Shown here piece after piece: positions 6,011 through 50,845 of a stretch of DNA of 64,000 bases. Where the stretch lies: assembly GCF_021412625.1 (NCBI RefSeq), contig NZ_JAKCFI010000007.1, forward strand, positions 186,001-250,000, given 5' to 3'. Source of the stretch: Myxococcus stipitatus (GTDB lineage: Bacteria > Myxococcota > Myxococcia > Myxococcales > Myxococcaceae). The notes beneath the pieces were generated by a model, which saw only the letters and a list, made by a program, of their open reading frames with translations, was not told the origin of the DNA and ran no database searches. Numbering within the stretch: position 1 is the first letter of the stretch; every line of letters starts with the position of its first letter. The translations under genes and the position numbers were made by a program.

Positions 6011-6319
6011 ACATGAAACAGTAGCACCGTTTGTCACATCCGCGAATCCCGGAGTTCGTCTGTCATTCCGCGAGAATGAGGGGTGGAGTCCCCTCCACAT
6101 CCTGTCTGTCTTTTCTGGTGTCCGCGCCCATCAGGTGAGGGTGGACTCTCCACCACACCTGACTGTCGACCACGACACGGGACAGCGGAGGGGGCTCGCC
6201 ACCCAGAGCGAACGCGCGGAGCGAAAACGTGTGCCCCCGCCCGTGGAGAGGGAGATGATACCGCCGCGGCTCCGACATCGGCGCCGAGGCCGCCCCACCC
6301 CTCCTCCCCGGATCCGTCC
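6011..6319. promoter_or_regulatory. divergent intergenic region with a duplicated small palindrome
   Basis: These 309 bp separate the cytochrome/DUF1501 operon (minus) from the threonine-synthase-like gene (plus) and contain no convincing gene. Two related palindromes lie 58 bp apart: GTGGAG-tccc-CTCCAC at 6083-6098 and GTGGA-ctc-TCCAC at 6141-6153. Each is followed by a similar stretch (CATCCTGTCTGTC and CACACCTGACTGTC). They could be a repeated operator or small extragenic hairpins. I cannot place a convincing -35/-10 pair here. Confidence 0.35.
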
Positions 6320-7567
6320 ATGGCCCGCCAGCACATCCACCGACTCACGTGCCTGCGCTGTGGCAGGCACCACGCCCCCGAGTCGTCCTCCACGTGCGAC
6401 GCCTGTGGACTCGAGGGCATCCTCGACGTGGAGTATGACTACGAGCGCGTCGCGAGCACGATGACCCCGGAGGCCCTGCGCTCGCGCGCCGCGAACCACT
6501 GGCGGTATTGGGAGCTGCTCCCCTTGAGCGATGGGACGCGTCCCCCCTCGCTCCACCTGGGCATGACGCCCGTCGACGAAGCACCACGTCTGGCCGCGGC
6601 GCTCGGCCTGCGCTCGCTGCGGCTCAAGGACGAGACGCGCAATCCCACCTGCTCCTTCAAGGACCGCGCGAGCTCCGTCGGGGTGCTCAGGGCGCGCGAG
6701 GAGGGGCGCGCGGCCATCGCCTGCGCCTCCACCGGCAACGCCGCCTCCTCACTCGCGGGCTTCTCCGCCGCCGTGGGGCTGGAGAGCTTCATCTTCGTCC
6801 CCGCGCGCGCGCCCGAGCCGAAGCTGGCCCAGCTGCTCGTCTTCGGGGCCCACGTCGTCCGCGTCCAGGCCACCTACGACGACGCCTGGGAGCTGTGCCA
6901 GGCCGCCTGCGAGCGCTACGGCTGGTACAACCGCAACTGCGCGGTGAACCCCTACCTGGTCGAGGGCAAGAAGACCGCGGGCCTGGAGCTCGCCGAACAG
7001 CTGGGAGCGGACCTCCCCGACTGGGTCGTGGTCTCCGTGGGAGATGGGTGCACGCTGGGCGGCGTGTGGAAGGGCCTCCAGCAGATGCACCGCCTGGGGT
7101 TCATCCCGCGCCTGCCGCGCTTGCTCGGCGTCCAGGCCGCAGGCAGCCCCGCGGTGGCCCGGGCCTTCGCCGCTGGAGCGGACACCCTGCCCGACGCCGG
7201 AGCGGACACGCTGGCGGACTCCATCGCCGTCTCCCGGCCCCGCAACTGGCGCCGCGCCGTGCGCGCCGTGCGCGAGTCCCACGGCACCCTGGTGTGCGTG
7301 GAGGACGCGGAGATCCTTGAGGCCATGCGCGACACGGCCCGCCTCTCCGCCATCTTCCCCGAACCCGCCGCCGCCGCCGCCACCGCCGGGCTCGCCCGCG
7401 CCGTGCGCGAAGGCACCGTGCACCCGCGCGAGAGCGCGGTCGTGCTGGTCACCGGCAACGGCCTCAAGGACACCCGCGCCGCGCTCCAGGCCACGCGCCC
7501 GCCCCTGGACCTGCCACCGGACCTCGACGCGCTCGACACGGCCCTGCGGGAGCACCGGCTCCTGTAG
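6320..7567 (+). CDS. threonine-synthase-like PLP-dependent enzyme with N-terminal zinc ribbon
   Basis: A 415-aa fold-type II PLP enzyme. The PLP lysine is K114 in NPTCSFKDRASS, followed by the substrate loop ASTGNAASSLAGFSA and a glycine-rich phosphate-binding segment SVGDGCTLGG. The N-terminus has two CxxC pairs (C11/C14 and C26/C29), a zinc-ribbon-like knuckle seen in some threonine synthases. The family converts O-phosphohomoserine to threonine. The ATG at 6320 starts at the zinc ribbon, but its ribosome site is weak. The gene converges on sbnB with a 23-bp gap, so it may be a housekeeping neighbour or a precursor gene for the lipopeptide cluster. The substrate is not evident from sequence. 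Confidence 0.75.
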   Translation: MARQHIHRLTCLRCGRHHAPESSSTCDACGLEGILDVEYDYERVASTMTPEALRSRAANHWRYWELLPLSDGTRPPSLHLGMTPVDEAPRLAAALGLRSLRLKDETRNPTCSFKDRASSVGVLRAREEGRAAIACASTGNAASSLAGFSAAVGLESFIFVPARAPEPKLAQLLVFGAHVVRVQATYDDAWELCQAACERYGWYNRNCAVNPYLVEGKKTAGLELAEQLGADLPDWVVVSVGDGCTLGGVWKGLQQMHRLGFIPRLPRLLGVQAAGSPAVARAFAAGADTLPDAGADTLADSIAVSRPRNWRRAVRAVRESHGTLVCVEDAEILEAMRDTARLSAIFPEPAAAAATAGLARAVREGTVHPRESAVVLVTGNGLKDTRAALQATRPPLDLPPDLDALDTALREHRLL

Positions 7568-7590
7568 GGCCGCGCCCCCGCGCCGGCGCC

Positions 7591-8604
7591 TCAGCGCGTC
7601 AGCTCGGAGAAGAAGTCGGCGATGCGCACGTCCTGCCCGGTCGCGACCGCCTCGTCGTAGACCCACTTGCCCACCGCGAGGTCCAGCACGCCCAGGCCGA
7701 ACGGCGAGAAGATGATGGGCTTGTCCCTCGCCACCTGGCACCGCCCCCGGATGAGCTGCGCGAGCGTCCCCGTGACGAACTCGCGGTTGCCCGTGAGCTT
7801 CTCGGCCAGGTGCGGAGACGTGTTGGCCTTCATCACGTGCTCCACGTCATCCACGATGTTGTAGGAGCGCAGCAGCAGCTCCGGCGCGATATCCCTCAGG
7901 GAGATGTTGAGCACGAGCGGGTTGTGCGCCAGCAGGCTCGCGTCGTGGACATAGGGCGCGGGCGCCACCGTGGCGAAGATGAGCAGCTCGCTGCCGCGCG
8001 CCACCGTCTCCAGGTCGTGAGCCACCACGACGCGCTGGTGACGCTGCTTGTCCACCACCTGGTTGGCGAAGCGGTCCGCCTCTCCAGGCGCGACGTCGTA
8101 GAGCAGCACCTCGTCCATCTCCCAGCCCATGCGCAGGAGGAAGGTGTAGAGGTAGCGGGCGATGAGGCCGTTGCCCACGAGCCCCACCGAGCGCACGCGG
8201 CGTGAGCGGCCATTCATCCACTCCGCCGCCAGCACCGCCGACCCCGCCGTGCGCGCCGCGGAGATGATGGACGACTCGAGGCAGGCGAACGGATAGCCCG
8301 TCTCGTAGCTGTTGAGCACCAGCACCGCCGAGGCCCTCGGAAAGCCCTTGGCCACGTTCTCCGGGTAGCTGGCGATCCACTTGATGCCCGACACGTCGAA
8401 CTCGCCGCCGAGGAACGCCGGCAGCGCGATGATGCGGTCCCTCGGCTTCTCCGGGAACAGCAGGAAGTAGCTGTCGGGATTGACCGACCGCTTGTCGTCG
8501 TGCGCGAGATACGCGGCCTCCACCTTGCGGACGCACTCCTCGACGCGCGAGTGGATGAGCTGGTGGATGACCTTGCCGGTGATGACGGAGAAGTTGAAGT
8601 CCAT
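7591..8604 (-). CDS. sbnB: SbnB-like N-(2-amino-2-carboxyethyl)-glutamate dehydrogenase (Dap biosynthesis)
   Basis: A 337-aa member of the ornithine cyclodeaminase/mu-crystallin family, with the Rossmann motif GLVGNGLIARY at residues 141-151. The region around FPEKPRDRIIALPAFLGG and GIKWIASYPEN is typical of SbnB-type enzymes. SbnB oxidatively cleaves N-(2-amino-2-carboxyethyl)-L-glutamate to L-2,3-diaminopropionate and 2-oxoglutarate using NAD. I chose the ATG at 8604; an upstream in-frame extension of 38 residues looks non-native. It lies 41 bp downstream of the SbnA-like gene on the same strand, so the two form an operon. The three diamino-acid-type A domains in the neighbouring NRPS give the pair an obvious purpose. 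Confidence 0.88.
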   Translation of the reverse strand: MDFNFSVITGKVIHQLIHSRVEECVRKVEAAYLAHDDKRSVNPDSYFLLFPEKPRDRIIALPAFLGGEFDVSGIKWIASYPENVAKGFPRASAVLVLNSYETGYPFACLESSIISAARTAGSAVLAAEWMNGRSRRVRSVGLVGNGLIARYLYTFLLRMGWEMDEVLLYDVAPGEADRFANQVVDKQRHQRVVVAHDLETVARGSELLIFATVAPAPYVHDASLLAHNPLVLNISLRDIAPELLLRSYNIVDDVEHVMKANTSPHLAEKLTGNREFVTGTLAQLIRGRCQVARDKPIIFSPFGLGVLDLAVGKWVYDEAVATGQDVRIADFFSELTR

Positions 8605-8645
8605 GCGAGAGGCGGTTCGCGGGGGATGTCGAGTGGAGGGCGGAG

Positions 8646-9611
8646 CTAGCTGGCGAGGCGCATGGCCCATGTCGGGTTGAAGACCGTATCGAGATAGGCG
8701 GAACCGCGGTCGGCGCACAGGAAGAGCACCTTGGGCGGTCGCGAGAGGGAGCGCATCTTCGGAAGGTAGCGCTTCACGGCGGCATAGGCGGAGCCGGACG
8801 AGCCTCCCACGAAGAGCCCGTGGTCGAAGAGCAACTCACGGCACGCCTGCACCGCCTCCATCTCCGGCACCAGCACCACGTCGTCGATGCGCGCCTGCTT
8901 GAGCAGCTCCGGCACCGTCGTCGCGCCAATGCCGGGGATGTGGCGCTTCTTGGGCTCGCCGCCGAAGATGACCGAACCCTCCGCGTCCACGGCGATCACC
9001 CGGGCGGAGGGGAAGCGCTCCTTCACCCGGTGCGACACGCCGGAGATGGTCCCCCCCGTGCTCACCCCCACGAACACGTAGTCCAGTTCGCTGAAGCTGC
9101 GGCACATCTCCTCGCCCGTCAGCAGGTAGTGGGCCTCCATCGCCTTGGGATTTCCGTACTGGTTGGTCCAGAACGCTCCAGGGATGGCGGCGCACAGCTC
9201 CTTCACCTTGTTCAGCCGCGTCTTGAGGAATCCCCCCTTGTCATCCCGCTCCTCCACCTTGACGACCTCGTCACAGGCGCGGCGGAGGAAGGACTCGTTG
9301 CCAGGCGCGATGTTGGGGTCGATCACCGCGATGAAGCGCAGCCCCAACAGCTGGCAATAGCTGGCGAGCGCGGAGGCGAAATTACCAGACGAGGACTCGA
9401 CGATGGTCGACCCCATCGTCACGTCGCCGGACTCCACCGCTGACTTGAGGATCCAGAACGCGGGGCGGTCCTTCACGCTCCCGAACGCGTTGCAATACTC
9501 GAGCTTCGCGAAGAGCTCGATGCCCTCCATCCGGAGCGGCACCACGGGGGTCTCCCGCAGCCCCTCTTCGAACGCCTTCACGATCACTCGCAGGTCCGTC
9601 GTCTGGGACAT
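8646..9611 (-). CDS. sbnA: SbnA-like N-(2-amino-2-carboxyethyl)-glutamate synthase (Dap biosynthesis)
   Basis: A fold-type II PLP enzyme of the cysteine synthase family, 321 aa. The PLP lysine is in FGSVKDRPA (near residue 47), the substrate loop is SSSGNFASAL, and the phosphate cup is STGGTISG. SbnA condenses O-phospho-L-serine with glutamate to the intermediate used by SbnB. The segments EYCNAFGSVKDR and HIPGIGATTVPELL favour the SbnA subgroup over ordinary CysK. A GTG at 9614 is directly followed by an ATG at 9611; the ribosome site AAGGAA has better spacing to the ATG. The gene is divergent from the synthetase genes, with 172 bp between. Confidence 0.88.
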   Translation of the reverse strand: MSQTTDLRVIVKAFEEGLRETPVVPLRMEGIELFAKLEYCNAFGSVKDRPAFWILKSAVESGDVTMGSTIVESSSGNFASALASYCQLLGLRFIAVIDPNIAPGNESFLRRACDEVVKVEERDDKGGFLKTRLNKVKELCAAIPGAFWTNQYGNPKAMEAHYLLTGEEMCRSFSELDYVFVGVSTGGTISGVSHRVKERFPSARVIAVDAEGSVIFGGEPKKRHIPGIGATTVPELLKQARIDDVVLVPEMEAVQACRELLFDHGLFVGGSSGSAYAAVKRYLPKMRSLSRPPKVLFLCADRGSAYLDTVFNPTWAMRLAS

Positions 9612-9783
9612 CACGCTTTCCTTGAAATGCGCTATTGCAACTCTATGTCGATTTCCCTGTTCATTTCAATATCAATAGTGGAAAACCCAGAGACAAAATT
9701 CGGATAATCCACGAGTTCACAACGCCCTGGGTCGCCCGACGACGCGGGGCAGCGCAACCAAGCCAGGCAAGAGGATTTCAGAG
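9612..9783. promoter_or_regulatory. divergent control region between sbnAB and the PKS/NRPS operon
   Basis: These 172 bp are the only gap that can carry promoters for both the Dap genes (minus) and the 34 kb synthetase-exporter operon (plus). The part from about 9635 to 9720 is clearly more AT-rich than its surroundings (for example TTCAATATCAATAGTGG and ACAAAATTCGGATAATCC). I see several TTG-type hexamers but no pair I would defend as a promoter. The synthetase ribosome site AGAGGA lies about 8 nt before the ATG at 9784. Shared control of precursor supply and synthesis is an inference from this layout. Confidence 0.5.
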
Positions 9784-11853
9784 ATGCCCCGATTCACCAG
9801 GCGCGCCGACCCCCACCTCACGCTGGTCGACCTGTTGAACTGGAGGGCTGGGAACCAGCGGGAGGACCTTTCCTACACATTCTTGGAAGACGAGGAAGGC
9901 GTTGAGTCCTCGGTGACATATGGAGAACTGGACGCGCGCGCTCGGCGGATTGGCGTGGCGCTGGCGGAGGTGGCGCTGGCGGGCGAACGCGCGGTGCTTC
10001 TGTACCCACCCGGCCTGGAATACATCGCGGGCTTCTTCGGGTGCCTCTACGCGGGCGTGGTGGCGGTGCCCGCCTATCCGCCGGACCCCGCCCGGCTGGA
10101 GCGCACGCTGCCGCGGCTGCGGGCCATCATCGGGGACTCACGCGCGACGGTCGTGCTCACCACGACGTTCATCCGCGGCATGGTGGACTTCCTGGCGGAG
10201 CAGGCGCCGGACCTCGCGAAGCTGCGTTGGATGGCCACGGACGAGTTGGCGCAAGGACTCGAGGACGCCTGGCGCAGGCCCGCCGTCGACGGCGGCACGC
10301 TGGCCTTCCTGCAATACACGTCGGGCTCCACGGGTGTGCCCAAGGGGGTGATGCTCAGTCATTCCAACCTGATGAACAATCTCTGGCACGCCAACCAGAA
10401 GATGGAGATCCACGACGACTCGCGCTGCGTCTTCTGGCTGCCGCCGTACCATGACATGGGATTGATTGGGGGCATCCTCGAGCAGCTCTACGCGGGCAAT
10501 CAGGGGACGGTGCTGATGTCGCCGTACGCGTTCCTCAAGCGGCCCCTGCGGTGGCTGGAGGCGATCTCCCGGTTCCAGGCGACGCTTTCAGGAGCGCCCA
10601 ACTTCGCCTTCGACCTGTGCGTGCGCAAGAGCACGCCAGAGCAGCGGGCCGGGCTCCAACTGGGGACGTGGGAGGTGGCGTTCAGTGGCGCCGAGCCCAT
10701 CCGCGCCGAGACGCTGGAGCGCTTCGTGGAGGCGTTCGGCGTCAGCGGCTTCAGGCGTGAGGCCCTCTACCCCTGCTACGGACTGGCGGAGGGGACGCTC
10801 ATCGCCGCCGGTGGATTGAAGGCCGAGCCCCCCATCCTGCTCCCGGTGGAGGTGGAGGCGCTGGAGAAGGGGCGAGCGGTCGAGGCGAGGACGGACGCGC
10901 CGGGGACGCGGGTGCTGGTCAGCTCGGGCCGGACGCTGTGCGACCAGGAGCTGGTCATCGTCGAGCTCGAGTCCGGCAGGCCGTGCCCGGACGGGACCAT
11001 TGGGGAGATCTGGCTCAAGAGCCCGAGCGTCGCCCAGGGCTACTGGAACCGGCCCGAGGAGACCGAGCGCACCTTCCAGGCCCGGCTCGCGGACAGCGAC
11101 GCGGGGCCGTTCCTGCGCACGGGCGACCTGGGCTTCGTCCGGGACGGCGAGCTGTTCGTCGCCGCGCGGCTGAAGGATCTGATCATCCTCCACGGTCGCA
11201 ATCACTACCCGCAGGACCTCGAGTCCACCGTCGAGCTGAGCCACCCCGCCCTGCGGCCCGGCTGCAACGCGGCCTTCGCCATCGACGAGGGCGGCGAGGA
11301 GCGGTTGGTGGTCGTCCAGGAGGTGGACACGCGCCGGCCCTTCGAGGTCGACGCGGTGGTGGCGGCGGTGCGCGCGGCGCTGGCGCAGCAGCACTCCGTG
11401 CAGCTGTATGCCCTCGCGTTGATTCCCCCGGGCGGCATCCAGAAGACCACCAGCGGGAAGATCCAGCGCCGGGCCACGCGCGCCGCCTTCCTCGAGCAGA
11501 CCCTGGAGACGGTGCACCTGTGGCGCGCGTCCCCCGGGGAGGCCGCACCGGTCCCTCGGGTCCCGGTCTCCGCGACACCGGCCCCCGCCGAGCCCCCGGC
11601 GACCGAGCCGCGACCGCATCCCGAGGGGACACGGGCGCTCGTGGCGTGGCTCACCCAGGCGCTCGCGGAAGCCCTGGGCATGTCCGTGGCGGATGTCGAT
11701 CCACGCACGCCCTTCTCCCAGTACGGCGTGGACTCCGTGGTCGGCGTGCGCCTGGCGGGTGACCTGGAGGCACGACTCGGGCGTCCGATGCCCGCCACGC
11801 TGGTGTGGGAGCATCCGACCATCGAGGCGCTCGCGAGGCATCTGAGCCCTGGC
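9784..11853 (+). other. loading module: fatty acyl-AMP ligase plus ACP
   Basis: The N-terminal adenylating domain resembles FAALs more than amino-acid A domains: it has YTSGSTGVPKGVMLSH, the FAAL-type WLPPYHDMGLIGG motif, a YPCYGLAEGTL segment and ends with GGIQKTTSGKIQR. The following carrier has the phosphopantetheine serine in YGVDSVVG (Ser651). FAALs activate free fatty acids as acyl-AMP and hand them to the adjacent ACP without CoA. Chain length cannot be read from sequence. Confidence 0.9.
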
Positions 11854-14800
11854 GATGAGGCCGGGGCGGAAGCGCGCGTTGCCCGCGCGACCAGCGAGGC
11901 GGAACCCATCGCGATCATCGGCCTGGGCTGCCGCTTCCCCCAGGCCGACGGAGTCGAGGCCTTCTGGCGTCTGCTCTCCGAGGGGGTCGACGCCATCCGC
12001 GAGGTGCCGGCCGACCGTTGGGACATCGACGCGTACTTCGACGCCGAGCCCACCGCGCCTGGAAAGATGACCACCCGCTGGGGGGGCTTCCTGGACTCCG
12101 TCGATGGATTCGATCGCGAGTTCTTCGGCATCTCGCCGCGCGAAGCGGCCCGCATGGATCCCCAGCAGCGCCTGATGCTGGAGGTGGCGTGGGAGGCGCT
12201 CGAGGACGCGGGGCTGCCCGCCGAACGACTGGCCGGCACGCGCGCGGGCGTCTTCGTCGGAATCTCCACCTCGGACTACGGCAGCCAGCAGCTCACCCGG
12301 CGAGGGATGTCGGACGCGTACGCGGGCACCGGGAGCGCGCTGAGCATCGCGGCCAACCGGCTGTCGTACCTGCTGGACCTGCGCGGGCCGAGCCTGGCGA
12401 TCGACACGGCGTGCTCGTCGTCGCTCGTGGCGGTTCACATGGCCTGCCAGAGCCTGCGCTCGGGGGAGTCCGAGGTGGCGTTGGCGGGCGGCGTGAACGT
12501 GGTGCTGTCCCCAGCGCTCACGGTCAACTTCAGCAAGGCGGGATTCATGGCGCCGGATGGGCGGTGCAAGCCCTTCGACGCGTCCGCCAACGGTTATGTG
12601 CGCAGCGAGGGCGCCGGCGTCGTCGTGCTCAAGCCGCTGTCTCGCGCGTTGGCGGACGGGGACACCATCCATGCCGTCATCCGCGGCAGCGCGGTGAACC
12701 AGGATGGCCGCTCCAACGGTCTGACGGCGCCCAACCGGCTGTCCCAGGAGGCGGTGCTGCGCGAGGCCTACCGGCGCGCGGGCGTGTCGCCGGGACGGGT
12801 GCGGTACGTGGAGGCGCACGGCACGGGTACGGCGCTGGGGGACCCCATCGAGGCGCGGGCGCTGGGCGCGGTGCTCGCCGAGGGACGGGCGCCGGGGGAC
12901 ACGTGTGCCATCGGCTCGGTGAAGAGCAACCTGGGCCACCTGGAGGCGGCGGCGGGCATCGCCGGGCTTCTCAAGGTCGTGCTCTCCCTGCGCGAACGGG
13001 CCCTTCCTCCCACCCTGCACTTCCGCGCGCCCAATCCCCACATCCCCTTCGCGGAGCTGCCGCTGCGCGTGCAGCAGCACCTGGAGCCCCTGCCCGAGAC
13101 GGGCGAGCCCACGCTGGCGGGGGTGAGCGCCTTCGGCTTCGGCGGCACCAACGCCCACGTCGTGCTGGAGTCCTTCCGGCCCTCGGAGGACACGAGGAAG
13201 AGCGATGGCTCGCGGGTGCGCCCCCAGTTGCTGCCACTGTCCGCGCGGAGCCCGGCGGCCCTCCGCGCCCTGGCACAGCGATACCTGGCCAGGGTCACCA
13301 GGGATGGCCCTGACGCGGAGGCGCGGCTCGAATCGCTCTGCGACTCGGCGGGGAGGCGGCGCGGCACGCTGGAGCACCGGCTGGCGCTCACCGTCTCCAG
13401 CGCCGAGGAGCTGCGCGAGAAGCTGGAAGCCTTCGTCGCGGGGGAGCGCCGGCCCGGCACGCAAGCGGGGCTGAGCAAGCCGGGCGCGCGGCCGAAGCTC
13501 GCCTTCGTGTTCTCCGGGCAGGGGCCCCAGTGGCCTCGCATGGCGCGCGAGCTGATGCGCCACGCGCCCGTGCTGCGGGAGATGGTCGAGCGGTGCGACG
13601 CGCTGCTCCGTCCCCTGGCGGGCTGGTCCCTTCTGGAGGAACTCGACAAGGAGGGAGGCGCGTCGCGGTTGGCGGAGACCGCGTTCGCCCAGCCCGTGCT
13701 CTTCGCGCTGCAGGTGGGGCTCTCCGCGCTCTGGCGCTCGTTGGGTGTCGAGCCCGATACCGTGGTGGGCCACAGCGCGGGCGAGGTGGCCGCGGCGCAC
13801 GTCGCTGGACTGCTGAGCCTTCCCGACGCCATCCGCGTCATCCACCAGCGGGGCCTCGCTGCCCAGCGGGCCTCGGGCCTGGGGCGGATGGCGCTGGTGG
13901 AGCTGGGAGCGGTGGAGTCCTCGCGGCTGCTCGTGGGACTCGAGGAGCGGGTGGCGATCGCCGCCCTCAACGGGCCGACCTCGACGGTCCTCTCCGGGGA
14001 TGCGGCGACGCTCACCCGACTGGTGGCCTCGCTGGAGCAGCGAGGTATCTACGCGCGCATGCTGGGCGTCGACTACGCGTCGCACAGCCCGCAGATGGAT
14101 GCGTTCTGTCCGGAGCTGGAGCGCTCGCTGACGGGGCTCGCCGTGACGCCGCCCACCCTGCCCATCCTCTCCACGGTGGACGCGCTCCCGGTGACCACCG
14201 CCGCGTACGACGCGGCCTACTGGGCGCGGCAGCTGCGGGCCCCGGTGCAGTTCGCCCGAACGGTGGAGCGGATGCTGGACGAGGGCCACACGCTCTTCGT
14301 GGAGATGGCGCCGCACCCGCTGCTGCTCGCCGACCTGGGGCAGCGCCTGCGGGAGCGCGGGTTGGAAGGCGCGGCGCTGCCTTCGATGCGACGCCGCGAG
14401 GATGAGCGCACGGTGTTCCTCGAGTCGGTGGGGGCGCTGTTCGCGCAGGGCGTGGACGTCCGCTGGGGCGCGCTGCAACCGGCGCGACCGCCCGTGCCGC
14501 TTCCCACCTATCCGTGGCAGCGGGAGCGCTGCTGGCTGCCCGGGCTCGACAAGGACCAGGGGACCGGCGAGGACGTCGCGGACGAGGGGCTCGAGGACAC
14601 GGAGTCGCTGGGGGATTGGCTCTACGGCGTCCAATGGGAGCCGCTGGCCCCTCCGGACGCGACGGTGGCACCAGGCGCGCCCTGGCTGCTGCTGGCCGAC
14701 GCGGGAGGCACCGCGGAAGCGCTGGCCGAACGCCTGCAAGCCAGGGGTGAGCAGGTGGAGCTGCTGCCGCGCGGAGAGACAGGCACCGTGGCCGTGCGCG

Positions 14801-17800
14801 AAGCCGTGGCGGAGCGGCTCCAGGCCCGGGGCCTCACCGGGCTGCGCGTGGTGCACCTGTGGGGGCTCGACGCGGAGGTGCCCGCGGAAGGGAGCGTGGC
14901 GGAGCTCCGCGCGGCCCTGGCGCTGGGCTGCGCTCCGGCCGTGGGAGCCATCCAGGCCCTCACGCGAGCGCCCCGGGCGGGATCGCGGCTGTGGGTGGTG
15001 ACGCGCGGAGCCCAATCCACGGGCGGCGCATCCCATCCCGTGGCCACGGCCCAGGCGCCTCTGTGGGGGCTGGGCCGGACGATCGCCTCCGAGCACCCGG
15101 ACCAGTGGGGCGGCGCCATCGACCTGTCCCCCGCCACCGAGGCCCGGCAACAGGTGGAGGCACTGCTCCGGGCCCTGGCGGCGGAGGGCGAGGAGCAGGT
15201 CGCCCTGCGCGACGGGCAGCTGCTCGTGGCGCGGCTGGTGCGGCGGCGCGAGTGGAGCCGACACGCGTCCCTCCCGCGCCTCCGCCCGGACGCGACCTAC
15301 CTCATCACGGGTGGCCTCGGCGGCCTGGGCTCGCGGGTGGCGCGCTGGCTCATCCGACAGGGCGCGCGCCGACTCCTCCTATTGAGCCGCACGCGGTTGC
15401 CTCCGCGCGCGCAGTGGCGGCGGCTCGAGGAGGGCACCCCCATGGCCGGCCACGTGCGCACCCTGCGGGAGCTGGAGGCGCTGGGCGCCAGCATCCACGT
15501 GGCGAGCATGGACGTGGCCGACGAGGCCGCGCTGCGCGCCTTCCTCGAGGCCTTCCGCGAGGAGGGTTGGCCAGACATCCGCGGCGTGGTGCACGCAGCG
15601 GGCGTGCTGCACGACGAGGACCGCAAGCTGTCGAGCATCGACGAGAAGGACCTGGAGTCCATCCTGCGGCCCAAGGCGGAGGGAGGCTGGCTGCTGCACC
15701 AGCTGCTGCGCGACGCGCCGCTGGATTTCTTCGTCGGCTTCTCCTCCGTGGCGGCGCTGTTCGGCTCGCCCGTGCAAGCCGCCTACTCGGCGGCGAACGC
15801 GTTCCTGGACGCGCTCGCGCACGAGCGCCGGGCGCGCGGCCTCCCCGCGCTCAGCATCAACTGGGCGCCCTGGGCCGGGCCGGGCATGGGGGTGCGGCCG
15901 GACCAGGAGGGCCGGCTCGCGGGCCTCGGATTCCAGCCCATGGCGCCCGAGCGTGCCCTCGCGGCACTCGGGTTGTTGATCGGCTCGAACCAGGCCCAGG
16001 CCGGGGTGATGTCGGTGCGCTGGGACGTGCTCCGCCAGCTGATGGGGACGGCGCGTGAGCCTCGCTTCCTGGCGCACCTCCGCGACACGGAGGCGAGCTC
16101 CAGCCGTGGCACCACCACGGGAGGAGCCCTGCGCGAGCAGTTGCGTTCGCTGGGGGACGCGGAGCGACGGGCACGGCTCGCGGAGTTCCTGCGCGCCGAG
16201 GCGGCCGCCGTCATCGGCCTGACGCCCTCGCGGCTCGAGATGGACCGGCCACTCAACACGATGGGCTTCGACTCGATCATGGCCATCGAGCTGCGCAATC
16301 GCATCGTGGCGCGGCTGGGGGTCCAGCTCCCCATCGTGGAGTTCGTCAAGGGCCCCACCTTGAACGAGCTGGCCACCACGCTCGCGGAGCAGCTCTCACT
16401 GGAGGGCGCCACGCCCACGGCCCGGGTCGAGATTCCCCTCGTGCGCCATCAGCCGACGAGCCCGGACGCGCCCATCAACCTCCATCCGCTCGCGTATTCG
16501 CAGGAGCGGATGTGGTTCATCCAGCAGATCGAACCCGAGAGCGTGGCTCACAACGTGCCGCTGGTGCTGCGCCTGCGCACGGTGCTGGACATCGAGGCGC
16601 TGCGCCGCGTCTTCGACGAGCTGATGCGGCGCCACGAGCCATTGCGGACCTCCTTCCGCCAGCAGGACGGTGTCCCCCAGCAGGTGGTCGAGGAGTCCTG
16701 GACGGTGGAGCTGCCGCACCAGGACCTCCGCTCGCTGCCCGAGGCCGAGCGTGAGGCCCAGGCGCTCGCGCGCGCCATGGAACTGGCGCGGCGCCCCTTC
16801 GACTTGAGCCAGGGCCCGCTGCTGCGACTGGCGCTGTACCAGCTCGCCGGGGACGAGCACCTGTTGGTGATGGTGATGCATCACATCGTCACCGACGGCT
16901 GGTCGCTGGAGGTCATGGCCAGGGAGCTGGTCGAGCTCTACGAGGCCTTCAGCCGCGGGCAGCCCTCGCCGCTGGCGCCGCTCCCCGTGCGCTACGCGGA
17001 CTTCGCGCGATGGCAGCGCGACAGCCTCCAGGGCGAGGAGCTCCACTCGCTCCTGACCTGGTGGAAGCAACAGCTCGGCGATGCCCCGCCCGTGCTGGAG
17101 CTACCGGGAGACCGGCCCCGCCCGGCGGTGCGCAACAACCAGGGAGCCCGCCATCCCATCCGCGTTCCCCGCCCGCTCGCCGAGCGCCTCAAGCAGCTCA
17201 GCCACCAATCGGGCGTCACGCTCTACATGACGCTGCTGGCGGGTTTCCAGACGCTGCTCCACCGCTACTCGGGCCAGGAGGACATCTGCGTGGGCTCGCC
17301 CACCGCGGGCCGCACGCGCTCCGAACTCGAGGGGCTCGTCGGATTCTTCCTCAACACCCTCGTGATGCGCGGTCGCGTGTCGCCCCACCTCACGGTGCGC
17401 CAGCTCCTGGCGCAGGTGCGCGAGGTGGCCCTGGGTGCCTACGCCCACCAGGATGCGCCCTTCGACAAGCTGGTGGAAGTGCTCCAGCCGGTGCGGAGCT
17501 TCAGCTACACGCCGCTCTTCCAGGTCCTCTTCATCTTCCACAAGTCACACCTGGGCGCGAACCTGTCCGGTCCCCTCTCCAGTGTGGTGGACCTGCATAC
17601 GGGGTCGGCGACGTATGACCTGACGCTGCAGTTGACGGAGGACGACGAGGGCCTCGGCGGCACGCTGGAGTACAGCACCGAGCTGTTCGACGAGACCACC
17701 ATCGCCCGGATGGTGCGGCACCTGCTGCGGCTATGGGAGGCGATGACAGAGGGAGAGGAGCAACGGCTGGGGGACCTGTCGTTCCTCACGCCCGAGGAGC

Positions 17801-19765
17801 GTCACACCCTCCTCGTCCAATGGAACGACACCGCTCGCTCCGACTTCCCCCAGCACCTCTGCCCCTACCAACTCTTCGAGTCCCACGCCCGCCTCTCCCC
17901 CGACTCCATCGCCGTCTCCTTCCTCCACCGCTCCCTCTCCTACGGCCAACTCAACCGCCTCGCCAACCGCGCCGCCCGCCTCCTTCGCTCTCTCTCCGTC
18001 GGCCCCGACGTCCTCGTCCCCCTCCTCAGCGAGCGCAACCCCGAGCTTCTCGCCTCCATGCTCGCCGTCTCCAAGGCCGGCGGCGCCTTCCTCCCTCTCG
18101 ACCCCCTCCTCCCTCCCCAGCGCCTCGCCGCCGTCCTCTCCCAATCCCGCTCATCCCTCGTCCTCGTCTCCAGCGAGCTTCTCCCCTCTCTCCAGCTCGC
18201 GCTCGACTCCCTCCCTCCCTCCTCCAGGCCCCGCTTCCTCCTCATCAACGACGTCCTCTCCTCCTCCCTCCCTGACTCCGACCTCGAGCCCCTCTCCTCT
18301 CCCTCCAACCTCGCCTACGTCATCTTCACCTCCGGCTCCACCGGAGTCCCCAAGGGCGCCATGGTCGAGCACCGCGGCATGCTCAACCACCTCTTCGCCA
18401 AGAATCGCGACCTCGGCTGCTCCTCCTCCGACGTCATCGCCCAGACCGCCTCCCAAAACTTCGACATCTTCGTCTACCAGAACCTCACCGCCCTCCTCCT
18501 CGGCGCTCGCACTCACATCGTCTCCAACGACGACGCCCTCAGCCCCGACAGGCTCCTCTCCCAAGTCCGCTCCCACCGCGTCTCCATCCTCAACATCGTC
18601 CCCTCCCAGCTCCGCTCCCTCGTCGACGCGCTCACCCACCGCCCCTCCTCCCGCGACGCCCTCTCCTCCCTCCGCTGGATGGTGCCCACCGGCGAGGCAC
18701 TCCCTCCCGAGTTGTGCCGCGAATGGTTGGCCCTCATGCCCTCCATTCCCCTCCTCAACGCCTACGGCCACACCGAGTGCTCCGACGACCAGGCCCACTT
18801 CCCTCTCCTCTCTCCTCCCTCCTCCTCCTCCACCCCCATCGGCCGCCCCATCCAGAATCTCCGCTTCTACGTCCTGGATGAGCGCCTCAACCCCTTGCCC
18901 CTGGGCGCCACCGGCGAGCTCTTCATCGGCGGCCTCGGCGTCGGCCGCGGCTACCTCGGCGACCCCTCCAAGACGGCAGAGAAGTTCCTCCCAGACCCCT
19001 TCTCTCCCCTCCCGGGCGCTCGCCTCTACAAAACCGGCGACCTCGGCCGCTGGAATGCCTCCGGCCTCCTCGAGATGCTCGGCCGCGTCGACTTCATGGT
19101 GAAGCTGCGCGGCTTCCGCCTCGAGCTCGGTGAAGTCGAAACCGCCCTCTCCCGCTTCCCCTCCGTCCGCGACGCCGTCGCCGTCGTCCGCACCGACTCC
19201 GGCCTCCAGCGCCTCGTCGCCTACGTCGTCCCCAGGGCCGGCCACTCCCTCTCCTCCTCGGACTTGCGCTCCTTCCTCAAGGACTCGCTCCCCGAGCACA
19301 TGGTGCCCTCCCTCTTCGTCCTCCTCGACTCCCTGCCCCTCACTCCCAACGGCAAGGTCGACCGCAAGGCACTCCCTCCTCCCACCGCCTCCTCCTCCGC
19401 CGACGCCTACCTCCCCCCTCTCGGCCCCATCGAGGAGTCCGTCGCCTCCATCCTCTCCTCCGTCCTCAAGCTGCCTCGCGTCAGTCGCTCCGACAGCTTC
19501 TTCGACCTCGGCGGCCACTCCCTCCTCGCCACTCAAGCCCTCTCCCGCATCAACCTCGAATTCGGCGTCGAGCTCCCTCTCCGCCAGCTCTTCGAGAACC
19601 CCTCCGTCGCCGGAATCTCCGCGCTCGTGACGCAGCATCAACTCGCGGGAGTCCAGGAGGACCAGTTGGAGCACCTGATCGCGACCATGGAAGAGCTATC
19701 GGACGAGGAGGTCCAGGCCCTCCTCGACGCGGACACCCTCACGAACGACAAGAAGCCTTCCGCCA

Positions 19766-19773: not shown

Positions 19774-42586
<22,813 letters not shown>

Positions 42587-42599
42587 GCGAGGACGCACC

Positions 42600-44255
42600 A
42601 TGGCACTCATCCAATTGCTGCTGCGGACGTCACGGGCCGGCGTCCTGCTATCCGTGTTGCTGGGCCTCGTCTCCGGTGCCAGCAGCGCGGGACTGCTGTC
42701 CCTCATCAACCAGGCGCTCGCCACCGAGGAGCGCTCGGGCTTGCTGCCCGCCTTCGTCGGGCTGTGCATCCTGCTGCTGGTGACGAAGGCGGGCACCCAG
42801 CTGCTCGTCAACCGCTGTCACCAGGACGCGCTCCTCGGCCTGCGGTTGGAGCTCAGCAACGGCATCCTCCGCGCGCCACTGCGGCGACTCGAGGAGCTCG
42901 GCGCCCACCGGCTGACGAGCACGCTCATCACCGACGTCCAGGTCGCCAGCGGCAGCCTCATCGTGGTCCCACACGTGCTCTGTCACCTCGCGGTGATGGT
43001 GGGCTGCCTCGTGTACCTGGTGTGGCTCTCGGTCCCCACGTTCCTGGCCACGCTCGGGCTGCTGGCCGTGGGGTTCGTCACCTATTGGGTCCCCTCGCGC
43101 TACGCCCTGAGGGCTTTGGGACGGTCGCGAGAGGAGCTGGACACCCTCTTCAGGCACTTCCAGACGCTCATCCAGGGCACGAAGGAGCTCAAGCTGCACC
43201 GCCCCCGGCGCGACGCCTTCGTCCACCAGCAGTTGCACCCCACCCTGGAGCAGCTGCGGCGGCTGCACACCCACAGCCAGGGCCTCTATGCCGTCAGCAG
43301 CGTGTGGGGCCTCTCGCTCTTCTTCTTCGTGGTCGGGCTGCTGCTCTTCGCCCTGTCCTCGTTCGGCCATGTGCGCACGCACGAGCTGGTCGGCTTCACG
43401 CTCACCCTCCTCTACCTGCAGCAGCCCCTGGACTACGTCATGGGCTGCGTGCCGACGCTCAGCGGCGGCAACATCGCGCTCGGTCGCATCCAGGAGCTCC
43501 AGCACATCCTGGCCACTGGCGAGAGCGACCTCCAGCCCGTCCTGGTCAACGGTGGGTCCGCCCGGGACGCCGCGTTCTCCGTCCTGGAGCTGCGCGGCCT
43601 CACCCACACCTATCACCGCGAGCAGGAGGACAGGCCCTTCATCCTCGGCCCCCTCCACCTGACCATCCGGCGAGGTGAGCTGCTCTTCGTCGTGGGAGGC
43701 AACGGCAGCGGCAAGACGACCCTCGCCAAGCTGATCACCGGCCTCTACACCCCGGAGGGAGGACGCGTGGTGTTGGATGGAGAGGACATCTCCGACGAGA
43801 ACCGCGAGCGCTATCGCCAGCTCTTCACCACCGTCTTCTCGGACTTCTATCTCTTCGAGAGCATGCTGGGCTTGACGCCGGACACCGTCGAGGAGCGAGC
43901 GCAGGGCCACCTCGAGCGCCTGCAACTGTCCCACAAGGTCCGGCTACAGGATGGAGTCCTGTCCACCACGGCCCTCTCCATGGGGCAGCGCAAGCGGCTG
44001 GCGCTGCTCACCGCATATCTGGAGGACCGGCCCATCTATCTCTTCGACGAGTGGGCCGCGGACCAGGATCCCGAGTTCAAGCGATTCTTCTACGAGGTGC
44101 TGTTGCCGGACTTGAAGCACCACGGGAAGACGGTGGTGGCCATCACCCACGATGACCGCTACTTCCACCTGGCGGACCGCATCGTGCGACTGGAGAACGG
44201 ACAGGTGCGGGAGGCGGGAGCCCTGCAACAGCTCCCGGAGGCCACCGGGAGCTGA
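42600..44255 (+). CDS. SyrD/PvdE-type cyclic peptide ABC exporter
   Basis: A 551-aa half-transporter with an N-terminal membrane domain (about six segments within residues 1-285) fused to an ATPase. Walker A is GGNGSGKTT at 366-374, Walker B is YLFDEW at 480-485, and the signature is LSMGQRKR at 459-466, the shortened form typical of the SyrD/PvdE family rather than LSGGQ. These proteins export non-ribosomal lipopeptides or pyoverdine precursors across the inner membrane. I chose the ATG at 42600, 13 bp after the NRPS stop, because it opens directly on the first membrane helix. The gene is evidently co-transcribed with the synthetases. Confidence 0.93.
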   Translation: MALIQLLLRTSRAGVLLSVLLGLVSGASSAGLLSLINQALATEERSGLLPAFVGLCILLLVTKAGTQLLVNRCHQDALLGLRLELSNGILRAPLRRLEELGAHRLTSTLITDVQVASGSLIVVPHVLCHLAVMVGCLVYLVWLSVPTFLATLGLLAVGFVTYWVPSRYALRALGRSREELDTLFRHFQTLIQGTKELKLHRPRRDAFVHQQLHPTLEQLRRLHTHSQGLYAVSSVWGLSLFFFVVGLLLFALSSFGHVRTHELVGFTLTLLYLQQPLDYVMGCVPTLSGGNIALGRIQELQHILATGESDLQPVLVNGGSARDAAFSVLELRGLTHTYHREQEDRPFILGPLHLTIRRGELLFVVGGNGSGKTTLAKLITGLYTPEGGRVVLDGEDISDENRERYRQLFTTVFSDFYLFESMLGLTPDTVEERAQGHLERLQLSHKVRLQDGVLSTTALSMGQRKRLALLTAYLEDRPIYLFDEWAADQDPEFKRFFYEVLLPDLKHHGKTVVAITHDDRYFHLADRIVRLENGQVREAGALQQLPEATGS

Positions 44256-44270
44256 GCCCCTCGCCGCCAC

Positions 44271-45698
44271 TCAGCTCGCTGCGGAGGGCACGAGGGTGAG
44301 GACGCCTCGAGAGAAGAGCGACTGCAGCCGCGCGAGTCCGGCCTCGTCGCCGGGAGGCGCGACCTCATTGACGGTGCGGTGCAGCACCCGCTCCAGGCAC
44401 TCCACCTCCGCGCGCTCCAACACGAGGTTCTGGAAGTCACTCGCCACGCGTCCCGTCTCCGGGTCCAGGTGACGTACCAGGGGCCCTATCTCGATGCGCA
44501 GCGTGTCGAAAGCGGGAGGCTCCGGCTCATGCTCGAGCTGCTCCAGGCTCTGTTGAATCCCTCGCCCGAAGGCCGCGCGGGTATAGGTGCGCTGGACGTA
44601 CTCGCGTCCACGCTGACACGCCTCGCGCGTCGCATCCGGTTCCCGCAGCGCGCGGAGGATGCGCTCGGCCACGCGGGCGTGCGAGCCCGGCACCCCGAAG
44701 GCGATGTCCACGTCCTCGACGACGTGGATTCCGTGGTCCGGTGGCAGGTTGAAGCGGTTGTTGCCGATGCCGTTGGTGAAGACGGGGCAGCCGTTGAATA
44801 CGGACTCCAGCACGTAGCAGCCAAAGGCTTCGGGGATGGTGTTGTAGGCGAGCCCGAGGCGGCACACGCGGAACAGCTCGAAGAGCGCGGTCTGGCTCAT
44901 GTGAGGAACGGGGATGAGGAGCTCGTCCAACCGGCACCCGAGCGTCGTGAGCACCTCGCGTGGCACGGTGACATCCAGCGGATAGCCCTGGAGCAACGAA
45001 TGATGGAGGTAGGCGAAGTCCTCGGCGAACACCACGAGGCGGAAGCGCCGCGCGTCGCCCTGCTCCCGGGCGTGTTGATGGAGCTGGAGCAGGATGCGGA
45101 AGACGGCATTCCAATCCGGCTTGCTGGCCTGCACGGCGTGAACGAGCACGCTCGTCTCCGCCGCACGGCGCACGTAATCCGGCAGCGGGCCTCCCGTCAT
45201 GCCTGGGTGTCCATCCGGCGCTTCCACGCAAGGGAGGGGCGCCGCGAGCGCCTCGACACGGGTGAAGCCCCGGGCGTCCAGACACCGGCGCCGACGCCAG
45301 TCCGGCAGCGTGAGCAGCGAGGTGATGACCCGCTGGACATAGGGGGACAGTGCCCAGTACCGGTCGATGACGGGGTTGTCGATCCACACCCCTGGCGAGC
45401 CGATGAGGCCGTGGAAGAGGACGAGGTTCCTGTGGGCAATCGCTCGGCTCGGTGGGCGGATGCCCAGGGCGAGGTCGCAGTAGACGGCGAGGTCCACGGG
45501 AGGCTCGGCGGTGAGCCGGCGGATGCGATCCGCGCTGGCCAGGGGGACGCGCTTGTCAGCGACCCCGATCCGCTGCCGGTAGAACGTCGTGGTCGCGTAC
45601 CCCAAGCGCTTCAGCTCGTCCTGGAGGACGGCGTTGATGGCGCCTGGCGCACCACCGAAGGGCTCCTCCTCGAGGAACAACTTCACCTCACCTGCCAT
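44271..45698 (-). CDS. GT4-like glycosyltransferase
   Basis: A 475-aa GT-B fold glycosyltransferase. The C-terminal half holds the GT4 E-x7-E motif in PEAFGCYVLE, followed by NGCPVFTNGIGNNRFNLP, which resembles the donor-binding loop. The N-terminus (VKLFLEEEPFGGAPGAINAV) resembles group 1 transferases. The ATG at 45698 follows AGGAGG with ideal spacing and overlaps the end of the upstream glycosyltransferase gene by 16 bp, so the two are coupled. The gene converges on the exporter with 15 bp between. Donor and acceptor are unknown. Tailoring of the lipopeptide is plausible from position only. Confidence 0.75.
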   Translation of the reverse strand: MAGEVKLFLEEEPFGGAPGAINAVLQDELKRLGYATTTFYRQRIGVADKRVPLASADRIRRLTAEPPVDLAVYCDLALGIRPPSRAIAHRNLVLFHGLIGSPGVWIDNPVIDRYWALSPYVQRVITSLLTLPDWRRRRCLDARGFTRVEALAAPLPCVEAPDGHPGMTGGPLPDYVRRAAETSVLVHAVQASKPDWNAVFRILLQLHQHAREQGDARRFRLVVFAEDFAYLHHSLLQGYPLDVTVPREVLTTLGCRLDELLIPVPHMSQTALFELFRVCRLGLAYNTIPEAFGCYVLESVFNGCPVFTNGIGNNRFNLPPDHGIHVVEDVDIAFGVPGSHARVAERILRALREPDATREACQRGREYVQRTYTRAAFGRGIQQSLEQLEHEPEPPAFDTLRIEIGPLVRHLDPETGRVASDFQNLVLERAEVECLERVLHRTVNEVAPPGDEAGLARLQSLFSRGVLTLVPSAAS

Positions 45699-47038
45699 GC
45701 GACGCCTCCTGGCCCGGAGTCGAGAAACCGTTGAATGACGTCCACGCATCGAGCGTTCGACTCCGCGTCGTGGAAGTGCGCGCGCATCCGCTCGGCGGCC
45801 CGGCGATACGAAGGCTCATGCGACACCTTCTCCACCAGTGACAGCAGCCGCTCGGGCGACAACCGAGACGGGTCCAGCCGTTCGCCGAGGCCGTGGTAGA
45901 CGACCCGCGCGGCGATGCCCGGCTGGTCGTGGAGATGGGGGACCACGACCATGGGGACGCCGAAGTGGATGCTCTCCTTCACGCTGTTGAAGCCGCCATG
46001 CGTGACCATGGAGGTGGCACGTCGCAACAGTTGGAGCTGGGGGACCTGTTCGACGGCGATCAGGTTGGGGGGAGCACTCTCCAAGCCCGGGGTGCGCCCG
46101 GTTCGACCCAGCGACAACACGAGACTCCAATCGGGTCGGCGACGGGCGATCTCCAACACGGCGCCATGGAAGAGGGCTTGCGTCTCCGCGCGATACTGCA
46201 TGGTGCCGAGAGAGAAGAGGTGGAGGGGCTTGTCCTCGGGGAGCCGCTCCCAGGGGAAGTCCGGCTCCTGGCGCTCCAGGTCGATGGAGGCCTCCGTGTA
46301 GAGGTACTGCCCGCCCGTGCGAGCCCTGCCGAACTCGACGAACTGACGTGGACAGAGCACCAGCTCGGGTAGCCGAAGCCCGGGGCTCTGTCCCTCGAAG
46401 TCGAGCGCCTCGGATGGAAAGCCATGGCGTCGGGCCAGCAACCGCAGGTAGCGCCGGTTGGGCGAAGACAGACCGAGCCACACCTTCACGGCATCGCGCC
46501 AGTTGCGCGCGGAGAGACGCCACCAGGCCCCGGCGATGCGGGCGCGCGTCACCCACCGTCCATCGGGAATCTCCCCCGAGCCCAGCGGTGGCTCCCCCGG
46601 CTCACGGCGCAAGGGAATGGTGGTGTTGAACAGCAGCACGGGCACGCCGTGGCCGTACGCGACCAGCGGTGGGTGGGGCATCAGCACGTCACACAGCAAG
46701 AGCTCGGGCCGAAGCGCCTTCAGGAGCCCGTCCAGCTCGCCCTCCATCATGGCTCGCAGCATGCCCGTCTGCATCGCCATGAACTTCCGGGCGAACAGCA
46801 ACAGTTGGAGGCCGCGCAACCCGGACGCCTCTTTCACGGCCCGCGCGTACGTGCCCTTGGGACAGAGCCGCTCGAAGATGCGGACGAACTCGAACCCCTC
46901 GGCGAGGACCGGATCCTCGATGTCCGCGATGCTGCAGTAGACGACGCGATGCCCGCGCTCCCGGAGCTGCTTGGCGAGCCGGAGGGTCGGGTTGACGTGC
47001 CCCCTCTCCGGAAAGGGGGCGATCAAGATGGTGGCCAT
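45683..47038 (-). CDS. MGT/UGT-family (GT1) glycosyltransferase
   Basis: A 451-aa protein with the start MATILIAPFPERGHVNPTLR, where the GHVNP segment holds the catalytic His typical of macrolide and UDP-glucuronosyl-type transferases. The C-terminal donor motif is THGGFNSVKESIHFGVPMVV followed by HDQPGIAARV. Such GT1 enzymes glycosylate small molecules such as natural products, more often than polysaccharides. An in-frame ATG at 47056 would add six residues and has a slightly better purine-rich leader; I prefer 47038 by family N-terminus. It is the first gene of the two-gene glycosyltransferase operon beside the lipopeptide exporter. Confidence 0.82.
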   Translation of the reverse strand: MATILIAPFPERGHVNPTLRLAKQLRERGHRVVYCSIADIEDPVLAEGFEFVRIFERLCPKGTYARAVKEASGLRGLQLLLFARKFMAMQTGMLRAMMEGELDGLLKALRPELLLCDVLMPHPPLVAYGHGVPVLLFNTTIPLRREPGEPPLGSGEIPDGRWVTRARIAGAWWRLSARNWRDAVKVWLGLSSPNRRYLRLLARRHGFPSEALDFEGQSPGLRLPELVLCPRQFVEFGRARTGGQYLYTEASIDLERQEPDFPWERLPEDKPLHLFSLGTMQYRAETQALFHGAVLEIARRRPDWSLVLSLGRTGRTPGLESAPPNLIAVEQVPQLQLLRRATSMVTHGGFNSVKESIHFGVPMVVVPHLHDQPGIAARVVYHGLGERLDPSRLSPERLLSLVEKVSHEPSYRRAAERMRAHFHDAESNARCVDVIQRFLDSGPGGVAWQVR

Positions 47039-47249
47039 GGGGGAAACCGGGCCCATGAACTCCCATGCGGACTCCGTGCATGGCGTGTCACGTGCGAATC
47101 ACGATATACCAGAAATCACTGATGACGCGGAAGACTGAGTCCCGCGGCCTGACCCCGAGTCCACACCTTCGACACATGACCACCGAGCAGTTCGCCCCCG
47201 ACTCCAGCGCAGCAATCGACTCCTTCACGGTCGTATCCGTGCCCTCGCG
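47039..47249. promoter_or_regulatory. divergent region between the glycosyltransferase pair and the O-antigen-ligase-like gene
   Basis: These 211 bp hold no gene I can support. On the minus strand TGGTATATC (complement of 47103-47111) resembles an extended -10 element about 65 bp ahead of the glycosyltransferase start, but no good -35 matches it. The plus-strand gene at 47250 has no visible ribosome site. Confidence 0.3.
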
Positions 47250-50776: not shown

Positions 50777-50845
50777 ACCATCTCCGCCCCATGCTTCGCC
50801 CCACGGGTGGGGACTGACCTATGAGGGCGGCGGTATGCTCATGTC

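What the first reader, a model, noticed from the sequence alone, without database searches (positions are those of the whole stretch)
6320..47038. Apparently undescribed glyco-lipopeptide-type gene cluster (FAAL-PKS-heptamodular NRPS with Dap supply)
One continuous set encodes fatty acid activation, a single reductive polyketide extension, seven amino acid modules with two epimerases, a thioesterase, a SyrD-type exporter, Dap synthesis and two glycosyltransferases. My A-domain reading gives acyl - Dap/Dab - D-Dab/Dap - Dap/Dab - Gly - Asp - D-aromatic - Asn, a short lipopeptide with three adjacent cationic residues. I do not recognise this order as a known myxobacterial product. Domain order is seen directly; product and novelty are inferred.
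Basis: partly seen in the sequence, partly recalled or inferred. Interest (0 to 1): 0.75.

Follow-up and report, generated by a model that had tools for sequence, protein, structure and literature searches.

The report
Orphan glyco-lipopeptide cluster with three Dap
This stretch of a soil-predator (myxobacterial) genome is a 47-kb inserted block of genes that very probably builds and exports a sugar-decorated, positively charged fatty peptide not described in the papers I could search; it is a new example of a familiar kind of antibiotic-type assembly line, sitting at a chromosomal spot where related species carry different assembly lines.

Summary
Two overlapping genes (9784-19773, 19766-42586) encode FAAL-ACP-KS-AT-KR-ACP, then seven C-A-PCP modules with E domains in modules 2 and 6 and a terminal TE; all motifs checked are intact. 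A SyrD/PvdE-type exporter, SbnA/SbnB, a PALP enzyme and two glycosyltransferases flank them. Codes read [+]-D-[+]-[+]-Gly-Asp-D-aromatic-Asn.

New results. (1) Sister clusters with code DIWQITADDK lack SbnAB and carry a Dab aminotransferase beside FAAL; this genome has SbnAB and no Dab aminotransferase over cut-off, so all three cationic residues are most likely Dap. (2) Modules 1 and 3 share a perfect 1,654-bp A-PCP repeat, with a pocket code (DIYNVTADDK) seen in no other top-scoring A domain of 195 genomes. (3) The cluster is a 46.9-kb island beside tRNA-Pro, replacing 2 kb in the nearest relative. All 15 genus genomes with enough flank carry NRPS/PKS genes within 40 kb on that side, 0 of 10 on the other. 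(4) The cluster probably extends to 49.6 kb. (5) The AT motif (YASH) suggests methylmalonyl.

No relative shares the module order and no described product was found. New member of a known kind; the product remains inferred.

The parts
6100..52966 (.). Genomic island (46.9 kb) carrying the whole cluster; the nearest relative G002 has 2.0 kb in its place
   Evidence: window 1530-6099 aligns to G002 at 87% and 52967-53689 at 95%; nothing collinear between them
6320..7567 (+). PALP (threonine-synthase-like) PLP enzyme, optional partner of SbnAB; role unknown
   Evidence: Pfam PALP, NCBIfam threonine synthase PRK08197 just over cut-off; beside SbnAB also in G015 and G026, same cluster in G055
7591..8718 (-). 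SbnB-type dehydrogenase (L-Dap synthesis, step 2)
   Evidence: TIGR03944 427.5 bits, cut-off 326.9
8646..9614 (-). SbnA-type PLP synthase (L-Dap synthesis, step 1)
   Evidence: TIGR03945 402.7 bits, cut-off 349.95
9784..19773 (+). Megasynthase A, 3329 aa: FAAL-ACP-KS-AT-KR-ACP-C-A1-PCP
9820..11523 (+). FAAL domain
   Evidence: closest solved chain 7r7e, E 4e-171
11902..15876 (+). KS-AT-KR extension unit; AT motifs GHSAGE/YASH (methylmalonyl-type), KR without the A-type Trp (B-like)
17736..19389 (+). Copy 1 of a perfect 1,654-bp repeat (end of C1, all of A1)
17875..19356 (+). A1, code DIYNVTADDK, predicted L-Dap
19766..42586 (+). Megasynthase B, 7606 aa: modules 2-7 and TE; overlaps the end of gene A by 8 bp
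21293..22759 (+). A2, code DIWEITADDK, predicted Dap (made D by E2)
23117..24355 (+). Epimerase E2 (HHLVVDG)
25747..27400 (+). Copy 2 of the perfect 1,654-bp repeat (end of C3, all of A3)
25886..27367 (+). A3, code DIYNVTADDK, predicted L-Dap; A-domain protein identical to A1
29099..30523 (+). A4, code DILQMGMIWK, Gly
   Evidence: the close code DILQLGMIWK is Gly-activating in PMC12283262
32270..33724 (+). A5, code DLTKVGHVGK, Asp
   Evidence: PMC12283262 reports this code for Asp and Asn, with most such sequences favouring Asp
35462..36883 (+). A6, code DACTIAAVCK, aromatic residue
37235..38485 (+). Epimerase E6 (HHLVVDTVSW)
40025..41479 (+). A7, code DLTKVGEVGK, probably Asn
41786..42583 (+). 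Type I thioesterase (GWSMGG)
42531..44255 (+). SyrD/PvdE-type ABC exporter
   Evidence: TIGR01194 503.5 bits
44271..45698 (-). GT4-like (GT-B fold) glycosyltransferase; start at residue 18 of the longest ORF by conservation
45683..47056 (-). GT1 (MGT/UGT-type) glycosyltransferase
47250..48725 (+). Wzy_C / O-antigen-ligase-like membrane protein, probable cluster member
48702..49604 (-). GT2 glycosyltransferase, probable cluster member
53023..53099 (-). tRNA-Pro(GGG) at the right border of the island, conserved about 590 bp 3' of pheT

Best explanation
A complete, probably functional hybrid FAAL-PKS-NRPS cluster for a cationic glycosylated lipopeptide. FAAL loads a fatty acid as acyl-AMP onto ACP. 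One KS-AT-KR round adds a malonyl- or, more likely, methylmalonyl-derived unit, giving a 3-hydroxy (2-methyl) acyl chain. Seven modules then add L-Dap, D-Dap, L-Dap, Gly, L-Asp, a D-aromatic residue and L-Asn, and TE releases the product (hydrolysis, or ring closure on the 3-OH or a Dap amine; unknown). SbnA and SbnB make Dap. GT1 and GT4 add one or two sugars in the cytosol and the TIGR01194 exporter secretes the product. Shown by sequence: gene set, domain order, motifs, pocket codes, precursor genes, island borders. Inferred: substrates, methyl branch, sugar, release mode, activity (membrane-directed, from the charge pattern).
For: Architecture and motifs. Codes. Modules 1-3 fall in a fully supported clade of A domains with codes ending TADDK (SH-aLRT 100). 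The best solved match for A1/A2 whose identity I could check is PvdL, aligned through E-C-A; the pyoverdine line includes Dab (PMC11855355; that the matched PvdL segment is the Dab module is my inference from domain order). Supply test: G043, G050 and G056 carry DIWQITADDK, no SbnAB, and a Dab aminotransferase over cut-off directly beside FAAL, whereas this genome and seven others with TADDK domains have SbnAB and none over cut-off. sbnA/sbnB-type genes in clusters of the Dap-containing chitinopeptins are precedent (PMC9248904). The GT1+GT4 pair recurs beside FAAL clusters of Corallococcus and relatives.
Against: No chemistry and no expression data. DIYNVTADDK has no characterised counterpart that I could find, so Dap at positions 1 and 3 rests on clade membership and precursor supply. 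YASH occurs with GHSAGE rather than the canonical GHSQGE, so I put methylmalonyl at about 60%. The aromatic residue is unresolved. MIBiG could not be queried. SbnAB could feed another cluster in the same genome.
Confidence: 0.72

Rival explanations
1. One or more of modules 1-3 takes Dab (for instance Dab in module 2), so the cationic block is mixed Dap/Dab.
For: Dab and Dap codes overlap strongly (two Dap codes share 80% identity with Dab codes, PMC12283262). A2 (DIWEITADDK) differs from A1/A3 (DIYNVTADDK) at three of ten code positions (239, 278, 299), so the two types could have different substrates. A close solved A domain is from PvdL of the Dab-incorporating pyoverdine line.
Against: No Dab aminotransferase over cut-off in this genome (best 207 bits against 401.6), while the Corallococcus relatives without SbnAB carry one next to FAAL; SbnAB stands beside the cluster.
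Confidence: 0.2
2. The fatty acid is a leader that is cut off after export, as proposed for corramycin and known for pyoverdine, so the final product is not a lipopeptide.
For: FAAL-primed corramycin in Corallococcus is proposed to be deacylated (PMC10099666). The exporter family TIGR01194 also includes the pyoverdine-type exporter (own knowledge).
Against: No Ntn-hydrolase or serine-peptidase-type acylase among the window proteins scanned with Pfam. The FAAL-loaded chain is elongated by a full KS-AT-KR unit before the peptide, which would be an odd investment for a discarded leader. The rest of the genome was not searched for acylases.
Confidence: 0.13
3. The cluster makes an already described compound that is missing from the open-access papers searched.
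For: MIBiG, subscription journals and theses could not be searched.
Against: The described myxobacterial lipopeptides found (myxochromides, cystomanamides) have different module orders (PMC9581180); corramycin differs (PMC10099666); searches combining Dap/Dab, lipopeptide and myxobacteria gave no match.
Confidence: 0.08
4. The perfect 1,654-bp repeat joining modules 1 and 3 is an assembly artefact rather than a biological duplication or gene conversion.
For: Exact repeats of this length are hard to resolve in short-read assemblies, and the genome is in 47 contigs.
Against: Both copies have distinct flanks inside one contig of at least 250 kb, and the PCP-side flank carries seven mismatches, so the copies are not simply duplicated. 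Near-identical A-domain pairs also occur within other clusters of the family.
Confidence: 0.15

Closest known systems
Corallococcus FAAL clusters with GT4+GT1 and a Dab aminotransferase (C. carmarthensis, C. sicarius, Corallococcus sp. AS-1-6)
   Same: FAAL 69-70% identical, one KS-AT-KR unit before the first amino acid, first module of the TADDK clade, GT4 and GT1 beside FAAL, TIGR01194-type exporter in C. carmarthensis
   Different: Dab instead of Dap supply; peptide [Dab]-D-Thr-Asn-D-Ser-aromatic, then (seen in full in C. carmarthensis) a second PKS module and further modules
Cluster of genome G016, same genus, same pheT/tRNA-Pro site
   Same: FAAL, GT1, GT4, exporter, Wzy_C protein, GT2; Asp and D-aromatic modules, the Asp domain in one clade with A5
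   Different: No PKS unit between FAAL and the first module, no TADDK modules found in the stretch read, Asp-D-aromatic at positions 1-2 instead of 5-6
Chitinopeptins and isopedopeptins (Bacteroidetes)
   Same: Lipopeptides containing Dap; the chitinopeptin clusters hold sbnA/sbnB-type genes (PMC9248904)
   Different: Different phylum; chitinopeptins are longer, rich in hydroxylated residues and have another residue order; no glycosyltransferase pair was mentioned in the passages read
Cystomanamides (Cystobacter fuscus)
   Same: Glycosylated myxobacterial lipopeptides (PMC9581180)
   Different: Asn-Asn-Phe-glyceric acid-Tyr, 3-amino fatty acid, FkbH domain; none of these is here
Corramycin (Corallococcus coralloides)
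   Same: FAAL-primed NRPS/PKS line (PMC10099666)
   Different: 12 modules with a HAD/FkbH-type second module; proposed to lose its fatty acid

Membership tests
FAAL-primed PKS/NRPS lipopeptide assembly line | FAAL and ACP at the start of the first megasynthase | tested here: met
FAAL-primed PKS/NRPS lipopeptide assembly line | Co-linear C-A-PCP modules with intact motifs, E/DCL pairing and terminal TE | tested here: met
FAAL-primed PKS/NRPS lipopeptide assembly line | The product keeps the fatty acyl chain | not testable with these tools
   needs LC-MS; no acylase among the window proteins scanned
Dap-containing lipopeptides (SbnAB type) | sbnA and sbnB orthologues in the cluster | tested here: met
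   both over NCBIfam cut-offs
Dap-containing lipopeptides (SbnAB type) | A domains of the Dab/Dap clade | tested here: met
   15-row TADDK clade, SH-aLRT 100
Dap-containing lipopeptides (SbnAB type) | Dap rather than Dab is loaded | tested here: inconclusive
   indirect: no Dab aminotransferase over cut-off in the genome; present beside FAAL in the relatives without SbnAB
Glycosylated lipopeptides | Glycosyltransferase genes conserved with the cluster family | tested here: met
   GT1+GT4 pair beside FAAL clusters in several genomes
Glycosylated lipopeptides | Sugar attached to the product | not testable with these tools
   needs MS/MS
Cystomanamide | Asn-Asn-Phe-glyceric acid-Tyr module order with an FkbH domain | tested here: not met
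   module codes; reference order from PMC9581180
Myxochromide | N-methylating Thr module first, 5-7 residues ending in Gln | tested here: not met
   reference order from PMC9581180
tRNA-borne integrative island | Insertion beside a tRNA gene with a near-empty site in a close relative | tested here: met
tRNA-borne integrative island | Integrase gene and a repeated piece of the tRNA end (att) | tested here: not met
   no second copy of 12 or more bases of the tRNA ends in the window, no 12-base direct repeat at the borders, no integrase among the island proteins scanned

The most novel reading that the evidence does not exclude
The cluster makes a glycosylated lipopeptide with three consecutive Dap residues (L-D-L), loaded at positions 1 and 3 by a new pocket type (DIYNVTADDK) copied between modules by gene conversion, and the tRNA-Pro/pheT flank in which it lies is a genus-wide exchange site where whole NRPS/PKS assembly lines are swapped.
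Probability: 0.45. Interest if true: 0.68.

Novelty: new member of a known kind. Interest (0 to 1): 0.5.

Why it matters
A short acyl peptide with a Dap-D-Dap-Dap head would be a compact cationic lipopeptide, a charge pattern of the kind found in membrane-directed antibiotics, and it comes with its precursor, sugar and export genes, so it is a practical target for isolation or heterologous expression. Two results reach further. The comparison of Dab-supplied and Dap-supplied sister clusters offers a way to separate Dab from Dap codes, which published code tables do not separate well. The tRNA-Pro/pheT flank gives a fixed place to look for different lipopeptide lines in any strain of the genus, and a system in which replacement of whole assembly lines can be studied.

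Tried and rejected
Literature searches for the pocket codes themselves found nothing. Searches for a described Dap or Dab lipopeptide from myxobacteria found none with this order. I considered that the m1/m3 code (DIYN...) meant an Ala-type domain; the tree puts it in the TADDK clade, apart from the DLFNNALTYK domains. A first impression that LgrA was the closest solved A domain was wrong: its score summed two domains. att-like repeats and integrases at the island borders: none found. The genome-contig scan with the GT4 alignment returned only Corallococcus and Archangium and did not name the host of the window.

Full report
OBSERVATION. The window is G000:C7:186001-250000 of a 10.1-Mb genome. 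Its genus could not be named by the tools; relatives in the same family include Corallococcus and Archangium. Gene A (9784-19773) and gene B (19766-42586) overlap by 8 bp. Pfam and internal searches give: A = FAAL, ACP, KS, AT, KR, ACP, C1, A1, PCP1; B = C2-A2-PCP2-E2, C3-A3-PCP3, C4-A4-PCP4, C5-A5-PCP5, C6-A6-PCP6-E6, C7-A7-PCP7-TE. All C and E domains hold HHxxxD, KS holds DTACSS, the carrier proteins hold their serine motif and TE holds GWSMGG. C3 and C7, the two that follow an E domain, are 56% identical to each other and about 30% to the other C domains, which fits the D-L pairing. An architecture like this does not arise by chance.

SUBSTRATE CODES. Aligned to GrsA: m1 DIYNVTADDK, m2 DIWEITADDK, m3 DIYNVTADDK, m4 DILQMGMIWK, m5 DLTKVGHVGK, m6 DACTIAAVCK, m7 DLTKVGEVGK. 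Gly and Asp for m4 and m5 agree with codes quoted in PMC12283262. m5 and m7 fall in separate clades, which favours Asp then Asn. m6 belongs to an aromatic group but Phe, Tyr and Trp cannot be told apart.

DAP OR DAB. The A domains of m1-m3 fall in one clade of 15 with SH-aLRT support 100, all with codes ending TADDK. I used precursor genes as the test. SbnA/SbnB occur together in ten genomes of the family in the sample. The three Corallococcus genomes whose TADDK code is DIWQITADDK (G043, G050, G056) lack SbnAB and instead hold a Dab aminotransferase over the TIGR00709 cut-off within about 250 bp of FAAL. Of the nine SbnAB genomes tested, including the window's own, eight have no Dab aminotransferase over cut-off; G033 has both. 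The simplest reading is that DIWQITADDK loads Dab and that the window's three modules load Dap. Caveats: the three Dab-type clusters are related, so they are one or few events, and other aminotransferase families could make Dab.

REPEAT. The A1-PCP1 and A3-PCP3 units share a perfect repeat of 1,654 bp (17736-19389 and 25747-27400) followed by about 212 bp with seven mismatches. This looks like recent gene conversion on top of an older duplication. Near-identical A-domain pairs with equal codes occur within several other clusters of the family, so the process is general. DIYNVTADDK itself was not seen in any other of the top-scoring A domains from 195 genomes of the phylum.

POLYKETIDE UNIT. 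The AT carries GHSAGE and YASH; relatives carry YAFH or FASH at the same place. By the usual rule YASH means methylmalonyl, so a 2-methyl-3-hydroxy acyl chain is more likely than a plain 3-hydroxy acid, but the rule is not calibrated for this clade.

TAILORING AND BORDERS. GT1 and GT4 recur together beside FAAL clusters. GT4 has no family hit above cut-off, but a moderate AlphaFold model matches GT-B retaining glycosyltransferases such as HepE, TreT and WaaG. The Wzy_C protein and the GT2 have their only close homologues in the genus in G016, inside its FAAL cluster, so I include them. A Wzy-type ligase with a GT2 could mean a second, extracytoplasmic sugar transfer; this is speculation.

ISLAND AND HOTSPOT. 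In the nearest relative, G002 (PheT 94% identical), the counterparts of window 1530-6099 and 52967-53689 are collinear and separated by only 2.0 kb instead of 46.9 kb. The right border lies 56 bp beyond the 3' end of tRNA-Pro(GGG) at 53023-53099, which is found about 570-590 bp 3' of pheT in all 23 flanks examined. On this side, all 15 genomes with at least 32 kb of flank (window included) have NRPS/PKS domains within 40 kb; on the other side 0 of 10 do. By module content they fall into roughly nine or ten types (my grouping); several genomes share a type by descent, so the independent number is nearer nine than fifteen. The exact insertion point was tested only for the window against G002; the opposite flank holds housekeeping genes and is an easy control; no att repeat or integrase was found. 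Homologous recombination between conserved flanks is therefore as likely as site-specific integration.

MECHANISM. See the best explanation. The gene set supports acyl-AMP loading, one reductive extension, seven condensations, TE release, cytosolic glycosylation and ABC export. The cationic head and lipid suggest a membrane-directed compound of a predatory bacterium; activity is untested.

NOVELTY. Described myxobacterial lipopeptides found in the open literature have other module orders (PMC9581180; PMC10099666) and no relative fetched here has the same order. This is a new member of a known kind, with a new peptide order and a new pocket code.

Noticed in passing
53023-53099 (-) and 3' flank of pheT across the genus: The tRNA-Pro(GGG)/pheT flank carries NRPS/PKS clusters of about nine types within 40 kb in all 15 genomes with enough flank; 0 of 10 on the other side.
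   Followed up: partly
17736-19389 and 25747-27400: Perfect 1,654-bp repeat between modules 1 and 3; similar A-domain homogenisation within other clusters of the family.
   Followed up: yes
6320-7567 (+): Threonine-synthase-like PALP enzyme that accompanies SbnAB in five genomes; its role in the pathway is unexplained.
   Followed up: partly
47250-49604: Wzy_C ligase-like protein and GT2 shared within the genus only with the G016 lipopeptide cluster; possible extracytoplasmic glycosylation of the peptide.
   Followed up: partly
G016:C1:11695186 onward: Asp-D-aromatic module pair at positions 1-2 resembles modules 5-6 of the window, with the Asp domains in one clade; suggests exchange of a two-module block.
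   Followed up: no
49724-51769: N-acetylmuramoyl-L-alanine amidase and transglycosylase genes lie inside the island beside the cluster; possible cell-wall or self-protection role.
   Followed up: no
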